Shown: in pieces, positions 1,598 through 47,073 of the stretch
Layout: every line of letters begins with the position of its first letter
Position numbering within the stretch: position 1 is the stretch's first letter
Source of the DNA: Flavonifractor sp. An92
Lineage (GTDB): Bacteria > Bacillota > Clostridia > Oscillospirales > Oscillospiraceae
Assembly (NCBI RefSeq): GCF_002159175.1
Contig: NZ_NFGZ01000013.1
Coordinates: forward strand, 1 to 64,000
Direction of reading: 5' to 3'
DNA: 64,000 nt
Notes under the pieces: generated by a model
Seen by the model: the letters and a program-made list of their open reading frames with translations, nothing else
Databases searched by the model: none
What the model was told of the DNA's origin: nothing
Program-made: the position numbers and the translations under genes

Positions 1598-1692
1598 AAG
1601 CGTGCAAATGGCAAACCGGTGGAAACGCCGGGACGCAAAGCTCAGGAGACTAAAGCGAGAGATCCCGCCAAGTCAGTCCGGCCGCCACGGAT
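1598..1692 (+). ncRNA. Cyclic-di-GMP-I (GEMM-I) riboswitch
   Basis: The leader carries the GEMM hallmarks in order: GGCAAACC (1610-1617), a helix closed by a GAAA tetraloop (CCGGTG GAAA CGCCGG, 1616-1631), then GGGACGCAAAGC (1630-1641) and a second arm closing at about 1690. The base equivalent to G20 of the Vc2 aptamer, just 5' of GCAAACC, is G. That favours c-di-GMP over the A20-type cGAMP class. A stable hairpin (1571-1600) precedes the aptamer. Downstream, ATTCTC (1696-1701) can pair with GAGAAT (1718-1723), which covers part of the ribosome site, so translational control is plausible. Confidence 0.87.
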
Positions 1693-41361: not shown

Positions 41362-42672
41362 ATGGAACAGAAAAAATGGCGTGTTGTCTGCTATATCAAC
41401 CAGTTCTTCGGCCAGATCGGCGGCGAGGACATGGCCCATGTGGGCTTTTCGGTGAAGGAGGAGCCGGTGGGCCCGGCCCTCCTCTTCCAGAAGCTGCTCC
41501 AGGACGACTGCGAGGTGGTGGGCACCATCATCTGTGGTGACAACTACTTCGCCGAGCACACCGAACAGGCCACTGCCGAGGGCGTGGAGCTGGTCCGGGC
41601 GCTGAAGCCCGACCTCTTCATCGCGGGCCCCGCCTTCAACGCCGGGCGCTACGGCATCAGCTGCGGCAATATGGTCAGCGCCGTGGGCCGGGAGCTGGGC
41701 ATCCCCACCGTCACCGGCATGTATCCGGAAAATCCGGCGGTGGAGCTCTTCCGCAAGGATACCTACATCGTCAAAACGGCCATCCTCTCCTCCCAGCTGC
41801 GCAAGGCCGCTCCGGTCATGGCCAGCATCGGCCTGCGCCTGCTGAAGGGGGAGCACATCGGCAGCGCCGCCTCGGAGGGCTATATCATCCGGGACATCAT
41901 CCTCAATGAGGAGCAGCCCCAGAACGCGGCGGAGCGGGCCATCGACATGGTCCTGAAGAAGATCAAGGGCGAGCCCTTTGTCAGCGAGCTGCTGCCGCCC
42001 AAGTTCGACCACGTGCCCCCCGCCCCTCCGGTGGCGGACCTGAGCAAGGTCAAGCTGGCTCTGGTCACCGACGGCGGACTCATTCCCCAGACCAACCCCG
42101 ACAAACTCAAGCCCAACGGCAGCACCACCTGGGGCCACTACAACTGGGACACCCTGGTGGCCGAGCCCCACTTCGTCATCCACAGCGGCTACGACGGCAC
42201 CTGGGTGCTGGAGAACCCCTACCGGCTCTTCCCGGTGGACATCCTGCGGGAAGAGGTGGCCCAGGGCAAGCTGGGCGCGCTGGAGGAGGAGGTCTATGTC
42301 TCCTGCGGCAACTGCGCCTCGGTGGCGGCCTCCAAGGCCAAGGGCCAGCAGATCGCCCAGGCCCTGCTGGACAAGGGCATCCAGGCGGCTATCCTGACCT
42401 CCACGTGAGGCACCAGCACTCGTTGCGGGTCAACGATCGTGAAGGAAATCGAGCGGGTGGGCATCCCGGTGACGCAGATCTGCGCGGTGGTGGACATCGC
42501 CAAGTCGGTGGGCTCCTCCCGCATCCTGCGTGGTTTTGCCATCACCTGCCCGGTGGGCAATCCCACCCTCAGCGCGGAGGACGAAACGACCTCCCGCCAG
42601 CGCTATGTGGAAAAGGCGCTGGACATGCTCACCAAGCCCGGCCAGAGCGGCATGGTGGAGGACATCCTTTAA
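41362..42672 (+). CDS. GrdB-like selenoprotein, reductase component B large subunit (in-frame UGA = Sec349)
   Basis: 436 residues when the TGA at 42406-42408 is read as selenocysteine. N-terminus CYINQFFGQIGGEDMAHVGF, VVGTIICGDNYF and IPTVTGMYPENPAVE match GrdB/GrdF/GrdH. The Sec site is ILTSTU-GTSTRCGSTIVKEIERVGIPV, nearly as in GrdB, where UxxCxxC is usual; here the middle Cys is Ser (UxxSxxC). Downstream, IAKSVGSSRILRG, CPVGNPTLS and VEKALDML keep family identity, so the codon is not a true stop. Role: with the pyruvoyl partner, cleaves a C-N bond of an amine-type substrate and passes a carboxymethyl-selenoether to component A. GrdA, GrdC and GrdD are not in the window. Confidence 0.88.
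42406..42437 (+). promoter_or_regulatory. Sec-insertion UGA with candidate bacterial SECIS stem-loop
   Basis: The UGA (42406-42408) is followed 12 nt later by CGTTG (42421-42425), a CGGGT loop and CAACG (42431-42435). A G-containing apical loop about 15-25 nt after the UGA is what SelB-dependent insertion needs. The stem assignment was drawn by eye. Confidence 0.65.
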
Positions 42673-43669: not shown

Positions 43670-45190
43670 ATGGATAAACTCTTCGGCGTGGACTTTGGCA
43701 CCGGCGGGTGCAAGGCCACCGTCATCGACCTGGAGGGCAACATCTGCGCCACCGCTTTTGAGGAATATCCCTCTGAGCACCAGAAGCCCGGCTGGTCCGA
43801 GCAGGACCCGGCCCTCTGGATCCAGGCCTTCTGCAATACCGTGCGGGCCTGCCGGGAGCAGATGGCGGACGGCTTCGAGGGCGTCCTGGGTCTGGCGGTC
43901 ACCGCCTCCACCCACAATGCCGTGCTGGTGGACAAAGAGGGACAGGTCATCCGCCGCTGCATCATGTGGAACGACCAGCGCAGCGGCGACCAGTGCCGCC
44001 GCCTGAAGGAGGCCCACGGCGACCTCATCTTCCGCATCGGCATGCAGATGCCCACCCCCACCTGGACCCTGCCCCAGCTCATGTGGGTGAAGGAGCACGA
44101 GCCGGAGCACTACGCCAGGATCCACCGCCTCTATTTCACCAAGGACTACATCCGCGCCTGGGTCACCGGGGACTTCTGCACCGACGTGGTGGACGCCCAG
44201 GGCAGCCTCCTCTACGACGCCCGGAACCGCTGCTGGTCGCCGGAGCTGTGCGGCCTCATTGACCTGCCCCTCTCGGTGATGCCCGAGATCCGCGGCTCCA
44301 AGGACATCGTGGGCACCGTGCGGGCCGAGGTGGCCGCTCAGACCGGTCTGCCCGAGGGCCTGCCGGTCATCGCCGGGTGCTCCGACACCGCCGCGGAGGA
44401 CTTCAGCGCCGGCGCAGTCCGGGCCGGCCAGATCATCGTCAAGCTGGCCACCGCTGGCAATGTGAACCTGGTCACCGACGAGGCGGCGCCCCACGCCAAG
44501 TCCTTCACCTACCCCTACTCGGTGGAGGGCAAGTGGTACACCGTCACCGCCACCAACAGCTGTGCCTCGGCCTACCGCTGGATGCGGGACGCCCTCTACC
44601 CCGCCGAGAAGGAGCTGTGCGAGGCCAAGGGCGAGGATGTGTACCTGCTCATGGACCAGCAGGCCGCCGAGTCTCAGCTGGGCGCCCGGGGCCTCCTGTT
44701 CCACCCCTTTCTGCTGGGAGAGCGCTGCCCCTACTTCAACCCCAACGCCCGGGGCGACTTCTTCGGCGTGAGCATGGTCCACACCAAGGGCGACTTTGCC
44801 CGGGCTCTGCTGGAGGGCGTGGCGTTCAGCCTGTACGACTGCCTCCAGGTACTGAAGAACTTCACCGATAACATGGCCGACATCGTGGTCATCGGCGGCG
44901 GAGCCAAGAGCCCGCTGTGGAGCCAGATCGTCAGCGACGTGTTCGGCCTGGAGGTCAAGCAGCCGGAGCACGCCGAGTCCTCCTTCGGCGGCGCGCTGCT
45001 GGCCGGTGTGGGCGTGGGCGCCTTCCCGGACGAGCTGGAGGCCGCACGGCGGTGCATACGCATGAAGCGGACCTACCGGCCCAACGCGGAGAACCACGCC
45101 AAGTACGAAAAGCTCTTTGCCATCTACAAAGAGGTGACCGAGGTCTCCGCTCCCCTGTGGGAGAAGCTGGCTGCGCTGGACGAGGCCTAA
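43670..45190 (+). CDS. FGGY-family carbohydrate kinase
   Basis: 506 residues. FGGY features: GVDFGTGGCKATVIDLEGN (phosphate-1 loop), MWNDQRSGDQ, DYIRAWVTGDFCTDVVDAQGSLLYDARNRCW, the catalytic Asp in GCSDTAAED, and VVIGGGAKSPLWSQIVSDVFGLEV (adenosine loop). Closest by eye to xylulokinase-like members. It phosphorylates a sugar or polyol, probably the product of the upstream dehydrogenase. GGGGAACT precedes the start. Ends before a GC-rich hairpin. Confidence 0.9.
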   Translation: MDKLFGVDFGTGGCKATVIDLEGNICATAFEEYPSEHQKPGWSEQDPALWIQAFCNTVRACREQMADGFEGVLGLAVTASTHNAVLVDKEGQVIRRCIMWNDQRSGDQCRRLKEAHGDLIFRIGMQMPTPTWTLPQLMWVKEHEPEHYARIHRLYFTKDYIRAWVTGDFCTDVVDAQGSLLYDARNRCWSPELCGLIDLPLSVMPEIRGSKDIVGTVRAEVAAQTGLPEGLPVIAGCSDTAAEDFSAGAVRAGQIIVKLATAGNVNLVTDEAAPHAKSFTYPYSVEGKWYTVTATNSCASAYRWMRDALYPAEKELCEAKGEDVYLLMDQQAAESQLGARGLLFHPFLLGERCPYFNPNARGDFFGVSMVHTKGDFARALLEGVAFSLYDCLQVLKNFTDNMADIVVIGGGAKSPLWSQIVSDVFGLEVKQPEHAESSFGGALLAGVGVGAFPDELEAARRCIRMKRTYRPNAENHAKYEKLFAIYKEVTEVSAPLWEKLAALDEA

Positions 45191-45211
45191 AATAAACCGA
45201 TCGCACCAGGA

Positions 45212-45238
45212 GAGCCCCGGGGCATCGCCCCGGGGCTC
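45212..45238 (+). terminator. GC-rich hairpin, probable terminator of kinase operon
   Basis: gagccccgggg (45212-45222) pairs with ccccggggctc (45228-45238), followed by only a short T stretch (ggttccattt). Confidence 0.65.
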
Positions 45239-45280
45239 GGTTCCATTTGGCGGTCCGGTCTGCAAAAAGCGCAAATGGGT

Positions 45281-45309
45281 TTGACAAGCCAAGGATCCTT
45301 CGGTATGAT
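45281..45309 (+). promoter_or_regulatory. Near-consensus sigma-A promoter
   Basis: TTGACA (45281-45286), a 17-bp spacer and TATGAT (45304-45309). The transcript should start near 45316, just before the riboswitch. Confidence 0.88.
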
Positions 45310-45328
45310 AGGAGCTGACAACGGAACA

Positions 45329-45396
45329 CGCCTATATAAGTCCATGATTCGGATGGACGTTTCTACCAACTGCCTAACAGTTGACTATATGGTATT
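45329..45396 (+). ncRNA. Purine riboswitch aptamer (guanine-type, C at specificity position)
   Basis: Elements in order: P1 5' strand and J1/2 TATAA (45334-45338), P2 gtccat/atggac closing the loop GATTCGG, J2/3 GTTTCTACC (45359-45367) identical to the xpt aptamer, P3 aactg/cagtt with a CC-bearing loop for the kissing contact, then J3/1 GACTATATGG with C (45385) at the position equal to C74. C74 selects guanine-like ligands over adenine. The gene downstream is an 8-oxoguanine deaminase, so guanine, xanthine or 8-oxoguanine may be the ligand. Confidence 0.9.
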
Positions 45397-45436
45397 CGCA
45401 TCTGCGATACTGACGGTCACTGAGAGGCGGTTTTTT
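45368..45436 (+). terminator. Riboswitch expression platform: terminator competing with P3 of the aptamer
   Basis: AACTGCCT (45368-45375, P3 5' arm) pairs with AGGCGGTT (45425-45432). CAGTTGAC (45378-45385, P3 3' arm and J3/1) pairs with GTCACTG (45416-45422) with one bulge. An inner hairpin (gtattcgca / tgcgatac, 45392-45409) caps it and six T (45431-45436) follow. It cannot form together with the folded aptamer, so ligand binding should prevent termination (ON switch). Confidence 0.78.
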
Positions 45437-45508
45437 GTTTGTCCGGGCGATCCCGCCCATGGAGGCGCTGGAACGTTGATCCTGCTCGATCCGATCGGAG
45501 GAATGGAA

Positions 45509-46864
45509 ATGTCTTCTCTGCTCATTCGCAACGCCGCTCATATTGTGACCTGTGACCATCAGGACCGGGTGTATGACCACGCCGACCTGCTGATCCGGGA
45601 CGGCGTGATCGCCGCCATCGGCGCGGTGGACCAGCCGGCGGACGAGGTGATCGACGCCGCGGGCTGCATCGTGTACCCCGGACTCATCAACACCCACCAC
45701 CATCTCTATCAGGTATTCAGCCGCAACCTGCCCCAGGTGCAGAACATGGAGCTCTTCGACTGGCTCCGGACGCTGTACGAGATCTGGAAGAACCTGGACG
45801 GCGACGTGGTCTACCACAGCTCCCTCACCGGTATGGGCGAGCTGATGAAAAATGGCTGCACCACCTGTTTTGATCACCACTATGTGTTCCCCAATGACCA
45901 CGCGGAGGGCCTGCTGGAGCGCCAGTTTGCCGCCGCGGAGGACCTGGGCATCCGCATGTACGCCTCCCGCGGGAGCATGGACCTGAGCAAAAAGGACGGC
46001 GGCCTGCCGCCGGACAGCGTGGTCCAGTCGGTGGACCGCATCCTGGACGACTGCCGCCGGGCGGTGGAGCGCTTCCACGACCCCGCCCCCTACTCCATGC
46101 GCCGGGTGGCGCTGGCCCCCTGCTCCCCCTTCAGCGTCTCGGAGGAGCTGCTGCGCCAGTCCGCCATCCTGGCCCGGGACCTGGGCGTGCGCCTGCACAC
46201 CCACCTGTGCGAGACCAAGGACGAGGAGAACTATGTGCTGGAGCGCTTCGGCATGCGCCCCTTGGCCTATATGGAGTCCCTGGGCTGGATCGGCTCCGAC
46301 GTGTGGTACGCCCACGGCATCCACTTCAACGACGAGGAGCTGCACCGTCTGGCGGAGACCGGCACCGGCGTGGCCCACTGCCCCATCTCCAACATGAAGC
46401 TCTCCTCCGGTGTGTGCCGCATTCCCGACATGCTCCGGCTGGGGGTGCCGGTGGGCCTGGCCGTGGACGGCAGCGCCTCCAACGACGGCTCCAACCTGCT
46501 GGAGGAGCTGCGGGTGGCCTATCTGCTCCACCGCCTCCAGTCCAGCCACCAGGCCCCCAGCGGCTACGACCTGCTGAAGCTGGCCACGGCGGGCAGCGCC
46601 CGCATCCTGGGCCGGGATGACATCGGCACGCTGGAGCCCGGCAAGGCCGGCGACTGCTTCCTGGTGCGCACCAACCGGCTGGAGCTGGTGGGCGCGGACC
46701 TGGACCCCAAGTCCATGCTGGCCACCGTGGGCCTCAAGGGCAGCGTGGATTACACCGTCGTCAACGGCAAGGTCACCGTGCGGGAGGGCCATCTGACCCG
46801 CCTGGACGAGGGCGTGGAGGCCGAACGGGCCGCTGCCCTGGTCCGCACCTATCTGGCGCGCTGA
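45509..46864 (+). CDS. 8-Oxoguanine deaminase (amidohydrolase superfamily)
   Basis: 451 residues from ATG 45509; CGGAGG lies 7 nt upstream, and ATG 45503 is too close. It closely resembles the recalled Pseudomonas PA0142 enzyme: PGLINTHHHLYQVFSRNLP (metal-binding His pair), MELFDWLRTLY, GCTTCFDHHYVFP, ALAPCSPFSV, HTHLCETKDEENY, WYAHGIHFND, GTGVAHCPISNMKLSSG and AVDGSASNDGSNL (catalytic Asp). Reaction: hydrolytic deamination of 8-oxoguanine to urate and ammonia, in the cytosol. The purine riboswitch upstream supports a purine substrate. Urate would feed the xanthine-dehydrogenase-type enzyme encoded at 20-24 kb. Confidence 0.88.
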   Translation: MSSLLIRNAAHIVTCDHQDRVYDHADLLIRDGVIAAIGAVDQPADEVIDAAGCIVYPGLINTHHHLYQVFSRNLPQVQNMELFDWLRTLYEIWKNLDGDVVYHSSLTGMGELMKNGCTTCFDHHYVFPNDHAEGLLERQFAAAEDLGIRMYASRGSMDLSKKDGGLPPDSVVQSVDRILDDCRRAVERFHDPAPYSMRRVALAPCSPFSVSEELLRQSAILARDLGVRLHTHLCETKDEENYVLERFGMRPLAYMESLGWIGSDVWYAHGIHFNDEELHRLAETGTGVAHCPISNMKLSSGVCRIPDMLRLGVPVGLAVDGSASNDGSNLLEELRVAYLLHRLQSSHQAPSGYDLLKLATAGSARILGRDDIGTLEPGKAGDCFLVRTNRLELVGADLDPKSMLATVGLKGSVDYTVVNGKVTVREGHLTRLDEGVEAERAAALVRTYLAR

Positions 46865-46997: not shown

Positions 46998-47073
46998 TGG
47001 TGGACGATACAGGACTTGAACCTGTGACCTCCCGCACGTCAAGCGGATGCTCTACCAGCTGAGCTAATCGTCC
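46998..47073 (-). tRNA. tRNA-Val (anticodon GAC), CCA encoded
   Basis: Minus-strand 76-nt cloverleaf: acceptor GGACGAT with ATCGTCC, discriminator A plus encoded CCA; D-arm TAGCTCAGCTGGTAGAGC; anticodon stem TCCGC/GCGGG with loop TTGACGT (anticodon GAC, reading GUC/GUU); T-arm ACAGG TTCAAGT CCTGT. Confidence 0.95.

What the first reader, a model, noticed from the sequence alone, without database searches (positions are those of the whole stretch)
45281..46864. Guanine-type purine riboswitch predicted to be an ON switch for 8-oxoguanine deaminase
The terminator helices (45368-45375 with 45425-45432 and 45378-45385 with 45416-45422) use the P3 and J3/1 bases of the aptamer, so a folded, ligand-bound aptamer should stop termination. 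Most guanine riboswitches are OFF switches. A substrate-induced ON switch for a degradative enzyme makes sense and raises the chance that the true ligand is 8-oxoguanine or another oxidised purine. Variant purine aptamers for 8-oxoguanine have been reported by others.
Basis: partly seen in the sequence, partly recalled or inferred. Interest (0 to 1): 0.75.

Follow-up and report, generated by a model that had tools for sequence, protein, structure and literature searches.

The report
Guanine riboswitch switching on purine deaminase
A guanine-type RNA sensor in front of a predicted 8-oxoguanine deaminase gene is built so that binding its ligand should turn the gene on, the opposite of most guanine riboswitches, and relatives in other gut bacteria keep the same wiring.

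Summary
A purine aptamer (RF00167, 40.3 bits, gathering score 37) lies at 45312-45407 behind an 11-of-12 sigma-70-type promoter (45281-45309). Both P3 strands, L3 and J3/1 re-pair into an intrinsic terminator ending at U-run 45431-45436. Free RNA should terminate and ligand-held aptamer should read through: an ON switch. Relatives agree. The aptamer precedes the same gene in 25 of 80 named loci. In all 20 leaders with a usable U-run, P3-5'/L3 (17) or J3/1-P1 (3) is complementary to the bases before it, with compensatory changes. In two Brachyspira leaders folded (of six), P3/L3 pairs with the Shine-Dalgarno instead.

The ligand claim is partly supported. The pocket is canonical guanine-I and lacks the J2/3 change of aptamers before the homologous gene in an order inferred to be Paenibacillales, presumably the published 8-oxoguanine class. 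But a canonical guanine riboswitch is reported to bind 8-hydroxyguanine with KD 10 nM against 2.1 nM for guanine (PMC7287874), so 8-oxoguanine is not excluded. Most likely: a guanine-responsive ON switch, 8-oxoguanine a possible co-effector. A gene-linked J3/1 variant before guanine deaminase was noticed in passing.

The parts
45281..45309 (+). Sigma-70-type promoter TTGACA-17-TATGAT; transcription expected to start just before the aptamer
   Evidence: 11 of 12 consensus matches; 1 found in 45180-45520, shuffles mean 0.3
45330..45393 (+). Guanine-I-type aptamer (three-way junction P1/P2/P3)
45337..45339 (+). J1/2 (UAA, U22-A24)
45340..45358 (+). P2 with L2 (GAUUCGG; its GG can pair with CC of L3)
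45359..45366 (+). J2/3 GUUUCUAC, canonical guanine-I (U47, U48, U51)
45367..45383 (+). P3 with L3 (CCUAA)
45384..45386 (+). J3/1 A73 C74 followed by U75; C74 is the guanine-specifying base
   Evidence: role of C74 from passages of PMC7287874 and PMC11477304
45368..45375 (+). Terminator outer helix 5' arm (= P3 5' arm + part of L3)
45425..45432 (+). Terminator outer helix 3' arm
45378..45386 (+). Terminator middle helix 5' arm (= P3 3' arm + J3/1 + U75, base 45382 bulged)
45415..45422 (+). Terminator middle helix 3' arm
45391..45411 (+). Inner hairpin of the terminator
45431..45436 (+). U-run of the intrinsic terminator
45497..45502 (+). Shine-Dalgarno GGAGGA
   Evidence: read by eye
45509..46864 (+). 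8-oxoguanine deaminase family gene, 451 aa, amidohydrolase

Best explanation
A transcriptional ON riboswitch with a canonical guanine-I aptamer. Shown by computation: promoter, aptamer with canonical pocket, and a terminator that consumes both strands of P3, part of L3, and J3/1. Step by step: RNA polymerase makes the aptamer first (complete near 45393). Without ligand, the bases before the U-run (45425-45432) pair with the P3 5' arm and L3, the aptamer unravels and transcription stops near 45436. With ligand, the closed junction, P1 and the L2-L3 contact hold P3 until polymerase has passed, and the deaminase is made (inferred). The predicted gap in favour of the terminator is 11.7 kcal/mol, about what binding at a KD near 2 nM is worth at 37 C (my arithmetic from a published KD for xpt), so ligand plus co-transcriptional timing could decide; which dominates is not known. 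Ligand, inferred: guanine most likely (about 0.6), 8-oxoguanine as main or joint effector next (about 0.25), other guanine-like bases the rest. Role, inferred: to induce a guanine-type purine deaminase, in some species together with a purine permease, when such bases are plentiful.
For:: folds of growing transcripts (5-base steps) keep P2 and P3 to 45420 and then change to the terminator; 17 of the 20 leaders with a usable U-run have P3-5'/L3 complementarity just before it at p <= 0.026; the other three (L018, L021, L022) have J3/1-P1 complementarity at p 0.017-0.036; in the 16 leaders that fit one pattern, the L3 base after CC pairs as G-C 11, U-A 2, A-U 1, mismatch 2; in the two Brachyspira leaders folded (of six), five of the six Shine-Dalgarno bases examined pair with P3/L3 at probability 0.94-0.97. 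U22, U47, U51, A73 and C74 in 26 of 26; 24 of the 26 enzymes fall in one clade of 30 rows, SH-aLRT 99; a PF00860 permease is the next gene in L011, L014 and L015, 3 of the 15 loci whose neighbours were listed (not all neighbours were family-searched).
Against: Folding is predicted, not measured; the freely predicted P1 of the window is in a shifted register, and the canonical one costs 1.3 kcal/mol more and has a bulge. The complementarity is not confined to this gene: 11 of 20 comparison leaders also have P3-5' p <= 0.026, most before guanine deaminase relatives. The shuffle test fixes the U-run chosen as best, which flatters the p values. The pocket cannot tell guanine from 8-oxoguanine (PMC7287874). 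Enzymes of this cluster are reported poor on guanine (kcat/KM <= 2.2 x 10^3; PMC13054789 passages), which makes a pure guanine inducer odd. The own genome has a separate guanine deaminase relative behind its own purine aptamer (L003). In the family the element is rare: of 30 family deaminase loci searched only the window's own has an R1 hit.
Confidence: 0.65

Rival explanations
1. An 8-oxoguanine riboswitch in function: the canonical-looking pocket is tuned by second-shell changes, or by the physiology, so that 8-oxoguanine is the true inducer.
For: The gene passes the 8-oxoguanine deaminase cut-off. Homologues in an order inferred to be Paenibacillales carry a purine aptamer with another pocket, presumably the published 8-oxoguanine class: 14 of 14 loci with 66-69% identity to the window enzyme and 11 of 16 with 54-57%. 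A canonical aptamer binds 8-hydroxyguanine with KD 10 nM. The genome has another purine aptamer before its guanine deaminase relative. A24 and the G25-C45 pair are constant in 26 of 26 but variable in the other purine aptamers parsed.
Against: J2/3 is the full canonical GUNUCUAC, not GCUCUAC. Guanine binds the canonical pocket five-fold better and is expected to be more abundant (inference). Variation at position 48 is not special: U48C is common in the other A73 purine aptamers parsed (15 of 29).
Confidence: 0.22
2. OFF switch: an antiterminator is favoured without ligand and the aptamer-bound form terminates, as in xpt.
For: Most guanine riboswitches reduce expression when guanine is plentiful (PMC9295807 section 5); the four of C. 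difficile are OFF (PMC11477304 passages).
Against: The only strong terminator that the folds show before the gene uses P3, L3 and J3/1. The consensus scan of 45180-45520 found only a hairpin upstream of the aptamer (45212-45238), but it sees loops of 3-8 bases only, so this is weak evidence. The overlap is kept in relatives, and in Brachyspira is replaced by a Shine-Dalgarno overlap.
Confidence: 0.06
3. The inducer is another guanine-like base, for example N2-methylated guanine or xanthine, matching a promiscuous deaminase.
For: Some AtzB-cluster enzymes hydrolyse N2,N2-dimethylguanine (PMC13054789 passages); some N2-modified guanines bind the canonical aptamer (PMC7287874 passages).
Against: The enzyme has CSPFS like the PDB 8-oxoguanine deaminase 7ww2, not the C, Q and N of N2,N2-dimethylguanine hydrolases; one of the eleven rows aligned, Brachyspira L025, has CAPFN. 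C74 disfavours xanthine (established knowledge).
Confidence: 0.1

Closest known systems
Guanine-I riboswitch (RF00167; B. subtilis xpt type)
   Same: Three-way junction, L2-L3 GG/CC, U22, U47, U51, C74, canonical J2/3 length
   Different: Predicted ON rather than OFF; controls a deaminase, not synthesis or salvage; L3 of 5-7 bases with a 6-bp P3 where the Rfam consensus has 7
8-oxoguanine riboswitch of Paenibacillaceae (Hamal Dhakal et al. 2023; paper not held, content recalled; cited in PMC11625349, and announced in PMC9295807)
   Same: Same gene family downstream; ON logic (recalled); purine three-way junction
   Different: The aptamers found here in the inferred Paenibacillales have J2/3 GCUCUAC and mostly U54-A72 closing P3; by eye their terminator arm is the P3 3' strand with J3/1
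pbuE adenine riboswitch (recalled)
   Same: Transcriptional ON switch in which the aptamer competes with a terminator
   Different: Adenine-specific U74
Xanthine-II, guanine-II and guanosine/2'-deoxyguanosine variants (PMC9295807, sections 5 and 9 and passages)
   Same: Purine junction; ON platforms described for xanthine-II and for the guanosine-type variant
   Different: Those have J2/3 and J3/1 insertions or pocket changes that are absent here

Membership tests
Guanine-I riboswitch | Covariance model match over the gathering score | tested here: met
   40.3 against 37 bits
Guanine-I riboswitch | Ligand-contacting U22, U47, U51 and C74 | tested here: met
Guanine-I riboswitch | Tight guanine binding | not testable with these tools
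   needs in-line probing or ITC
Guanine-I riboswitch | OFF regulation (usual, not defining) | tested here: not met
   predicted ON platform
8-oxoguanine riboswitch (Paenibacillaceae) | Altered J2/3 pocket as in the inferred Paenibacillales loci | tested here: not met
   GUUUCUAC against GCUCUAC; the published consensus itself could not be read
8-oxoguanine riboswitch (Paenibacillaceae) | Associated with an 8-oxoguanine deaminase gene | tested here: met
8-oxoguanine riboswitch (Paenibacillaceae) | Selective binding of 8-oxoguanine over guanine | not testable with these tools
   binding assay needed
8-oxoguanine deaminase (NF006055) | Score over the curated cut-off | tested here: met
   584.3 against 532 bits
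8-oxoguanine deaminase (NF006055) | Deaminates 8-oxoguanine | not testable with these tools
   enzyme assay needed
Adenine riboswitch | U74 | tested here: not met
   C74 in 26 of 26

The most novel reading that the evidence does not exclude
A second, independent solution to 8-oxoguanine sensing: in gut Clostridia, Brachyspira and Lactobacillales an unaltered guanine-I pocket serves as inducer of 8-oxoguanine deaminase. The same gene would then be controlled by two different purine pockets in different bacterial groups, with two expression platforms (terminator and Shine-Dalgarno), both of which use P3 and L3.
Probability: 0.22. Interest if true: 0.72.

Novelty: new variant of a known kind. Interest (0 to 1): 0.52.

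Why it matters
Guanine riboswitches are textbook OFF switches. Here a conserved group with the unchanged pocket is wired ON for a catabolic enzyme, with the strands of P3 reused as terminator arm or as anti-Shine-Dalgarno. A homologous gene in another order is controlled by a pocket variant. The pair makes a clean natural test of whether specificity lies in the RNA pocket or in cell chemistry.

Tried and rejected
Idea that variation at position 48 (U 21, G 3, A 1, C 1 of 26) marks a new ligand: rejected, because U48C is as common as U48 in the other A73 purine aptamers parsed (15 C, 14 U of 29) and the guaB riboswitch L133 has A48. Idea that the enzyme is an N2,N2-dimethylguanine hydrolase: disfavoured by the active-site motif. 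Plasmid search for nearer relatives: all 199 records below 60% identity. An energy of -20.6 kcal/mol for the aptamer form was found on checking to enforce P1 in a wrong register; it is replaced by -24.9. My automatic parser read 76 of 130 purine-aptamer loci. The 54 unread ones were printed; by eye most show the canonical GACUA, and they are not in the parsed counts. L091, the same locus as L085, was dropped before the counts. Published descriptions were sought. None of the listings or passages seen reports a guanine-I ON switch before a deaminase, but the key 8-oxoguanine paper is not held, so absence from print is not claimed.

Full report
What is there. The window (contig C5 of a 3.49 Mb genome of 60 contigs) holds, between a xylulokinase-family gene that ends at 45190 and a tRNA at 47001-47073, a single-gene unit. 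It has a TTGACA-17-TATGAT promoter (45281-45309), a purine aptamer (RF00167, 45312-45407, 40.3 bits), an intrinsic terminator, a Shine-Dalgarno GGAGGA and a 451-aa amidohydrolase (45509-46864). The protein passes the NCBIfam cut-off for 8-oxoguanine deaminase (584.3 against 532 bits) and not those for guanine deaminase. Its closest solved sequences are 3hpa and 7ww2, the latter labelled 8-oxoguanine deaminase. Where AtzB has SSPVI the window enzyme has CSPFS, as do 3hpa and 7ww2. The N2,N2-dimethylguanine hydrolases have C, Q and N at the motif positions (PMC13054789, passages).

The switch. The 3' arm of the terminator (45425-45432) pairs with the P3 5' arm plus part of L3 (45368-45375), and a second helix consumes the P3 3' arm and J3/1. 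In folds of growing transcripts P2 and P3 persist until 45420, and the terminator then takes over. Over 45327-45438 the free optimum is the terminator at -36.6 kcal/mol; with the canonical aptamer enforced it is -24.9, and with P3 alone enforced -29.4. The predicted P1 of the aptamer alone is in a shifted register, 1.3 kcal/mol better than the canonical one. Ligand that holds P3 and J3/1 should favour read-through.

Relatives. A scan of genome contigs with the protein kept the best 80 of 271 loci. Pattern searches and reading gave 25 aptamers. A model built from these and the window finds the same 25 of 80; it matches them by construction, and the information is that it finds no further one. 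Some loci have little upstream DNA (L028 1 base, L040 135, L048 338). The bearers are Oscillospiraceae, Lachnospiraceae, Brachyspira, Agrilactobacillus and an Enterococcaceae assembly. Another such locus, L237, appeared in the family survey. In the own family the element is rare: 68 of 300 genomes have a deaminase match, and of the 30 loci fetched only the window's has an R1 hit.

ON architecture across relatives. Six of the 26 leaders (Brachyspira) have no usable U-run. In the remaining 20, P3-5'/L3 complementarity to the bases before the U-run reached p <= 0.026 in 17, and J3/1-P1 complementarity reached p 0.017-0.036 in the other three. Five (L007, L012, L013, L015, L016) have both. In the 16 leaders that fit one pattern, the L3 base after CC changes with its terminator partner (G-C 11, U-A 2, A-U 1, mismatch 2). 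In Brachyspira P3/L3 differs (AAUUACCUC) and is complementary to the Shine-Dalgarno. Two of the six leaders were folded; five of the six Shine-Dalgarno bases examined pair with P3/L3 at probability 0.94-0.97. So the same part of the aptamer is tied to a terminator in some lineages and to the ribosome site in another. Comparison set: 11 of 20 other purine leaders also show P3-5' complementarity at p <= 0.026, nine of them before guanine deaminase relatives with altered J3/1, so the feature marks ON wiring of catabolic genes rather than this gene alone. The xpt and guaB riboswitches of Clostridium hydrogeniformans do not show it (p 0.20 and 0.08).

History. In a tree of 139 enzymes, 24 of the 26 ON-type bearers fall in one clade of 30 rows (SH-aLRT 99) that spans Bacillota and Brachyspira; the other two are the Lactobacillales pair (quick method, midpoint root). 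This suggests horizontal spread of gene and switch together (inference).

Ligand. All 26 aptamers have the canonical guanine-I core. A search of 392 genomes of an order that I infer to be Paenibacillales found 37 genomes with the deaminase. Of the 30 loci fetched, 25 carry a purine aptamer with a shortened J2/3, GCUCUAC: 24 by pattern plus L152 by R1 (R1 alone finds 23 of 30). I take this to be the 8-oxoguanine class announced in PMC9295807 (section 9) and cited in PMC11625349 (passage). The 2023 paper itself is not held, so this is inference. The window's pocket is not of that type. Yet PMC7287874 (section 2.1 whole and Table 1 passage) reports that the canonical aptamer binds 8-hydroxyguanine, the tautomer name of 8-oxoguanine, with KD 10 nM against 2.1 nM for guanine. 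Hence the pocket argues for guanine as first ligand but does not exclude 8-oxoguanine. A PF00860 permease follows the deaminase in L011, L014 and L015, which points to use of outside bases rather than DNA repair alone (inference).

A second variant, seen in passing. In the purine aptamers surveyed (mostly the window's family), those before a 2i9u-like guanine deaminase rarely keep A73 in J3/1: in 36 of 37 parsed cases it is replaced or displaced (GC, CC, UC, CGC, CCC), against 8 of 38 of the other parsed aptamers (Fisher p 2e-12, species not independent). All six parsed Xpt and all five parsed permease cases keep A. Among loci that the parser missed or misassigned, L278 and L288 are guanine deaminases that keep A, and L244, L267 and L279 are guanine deaminases that do not. 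The own genome has one such variant, L003; its protein scores below the NCBIfam guanine deaminase cut-off (322 against 375 bits) and best matches 2i9u. Whether this variant is known I could not establish.

Verdict. A real, conserved, ON-wired guanine-I riboswitch. Its ON logic is well supported by comparison, its ligand is open between guanine and 8-oxoguanine, and guanine is the likelier.

Noticed in passing
L003 (own genome, G000:C19:40565-40662) and loci such as L085-L090, L138, L141, L211, L219, L227: Purine aptamers before 2i9u-like guanine deaminase genes have J3/1 with A73 replaced or displaced in 36 of 37 parsed cases, while the parsed Xpt (6 of 6) and permease (5 of 5) aptamers keep A73; 21 of the 37 have at least 6 bp of P3-5' complementarity before a U-run. 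Possible undescribed variant group.
   Followed up: partly
L130 and L246: Altered J3/1 (GC by eye, UC) also before XdhA-type xanthine dehydrogenase genes, with P3-5' complementarity of 11 and 12 bp before the U-run.
   Followed up: partly
L001/L002 (own genome, G000:C12:207174-207360): Two purine aptamers in tandem before a PF00860 purine permease.
   Followed up: no
L226 and L232: Purine aptamers with J1/2 UAUUAG and a lengthened J3/1 (by eye) before an ABC-transporter-like and an unidentified gene, perhaps like the insertion-bearing variants of PMC9295807.
   Followed up: no
window 41362-42672: Glycine-reductase GrdB-like gene (name by recall, no family search) with an in-frame TGA at 42406-42408 that reads on as ...ILTSTUGTSTRCG..., probably selenocysteine.
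   Followed up: partly
window 1600-1689: c-di-GMP-I riboswitch, 64.4 bits; gene downstream not examined.
   Followed up: no
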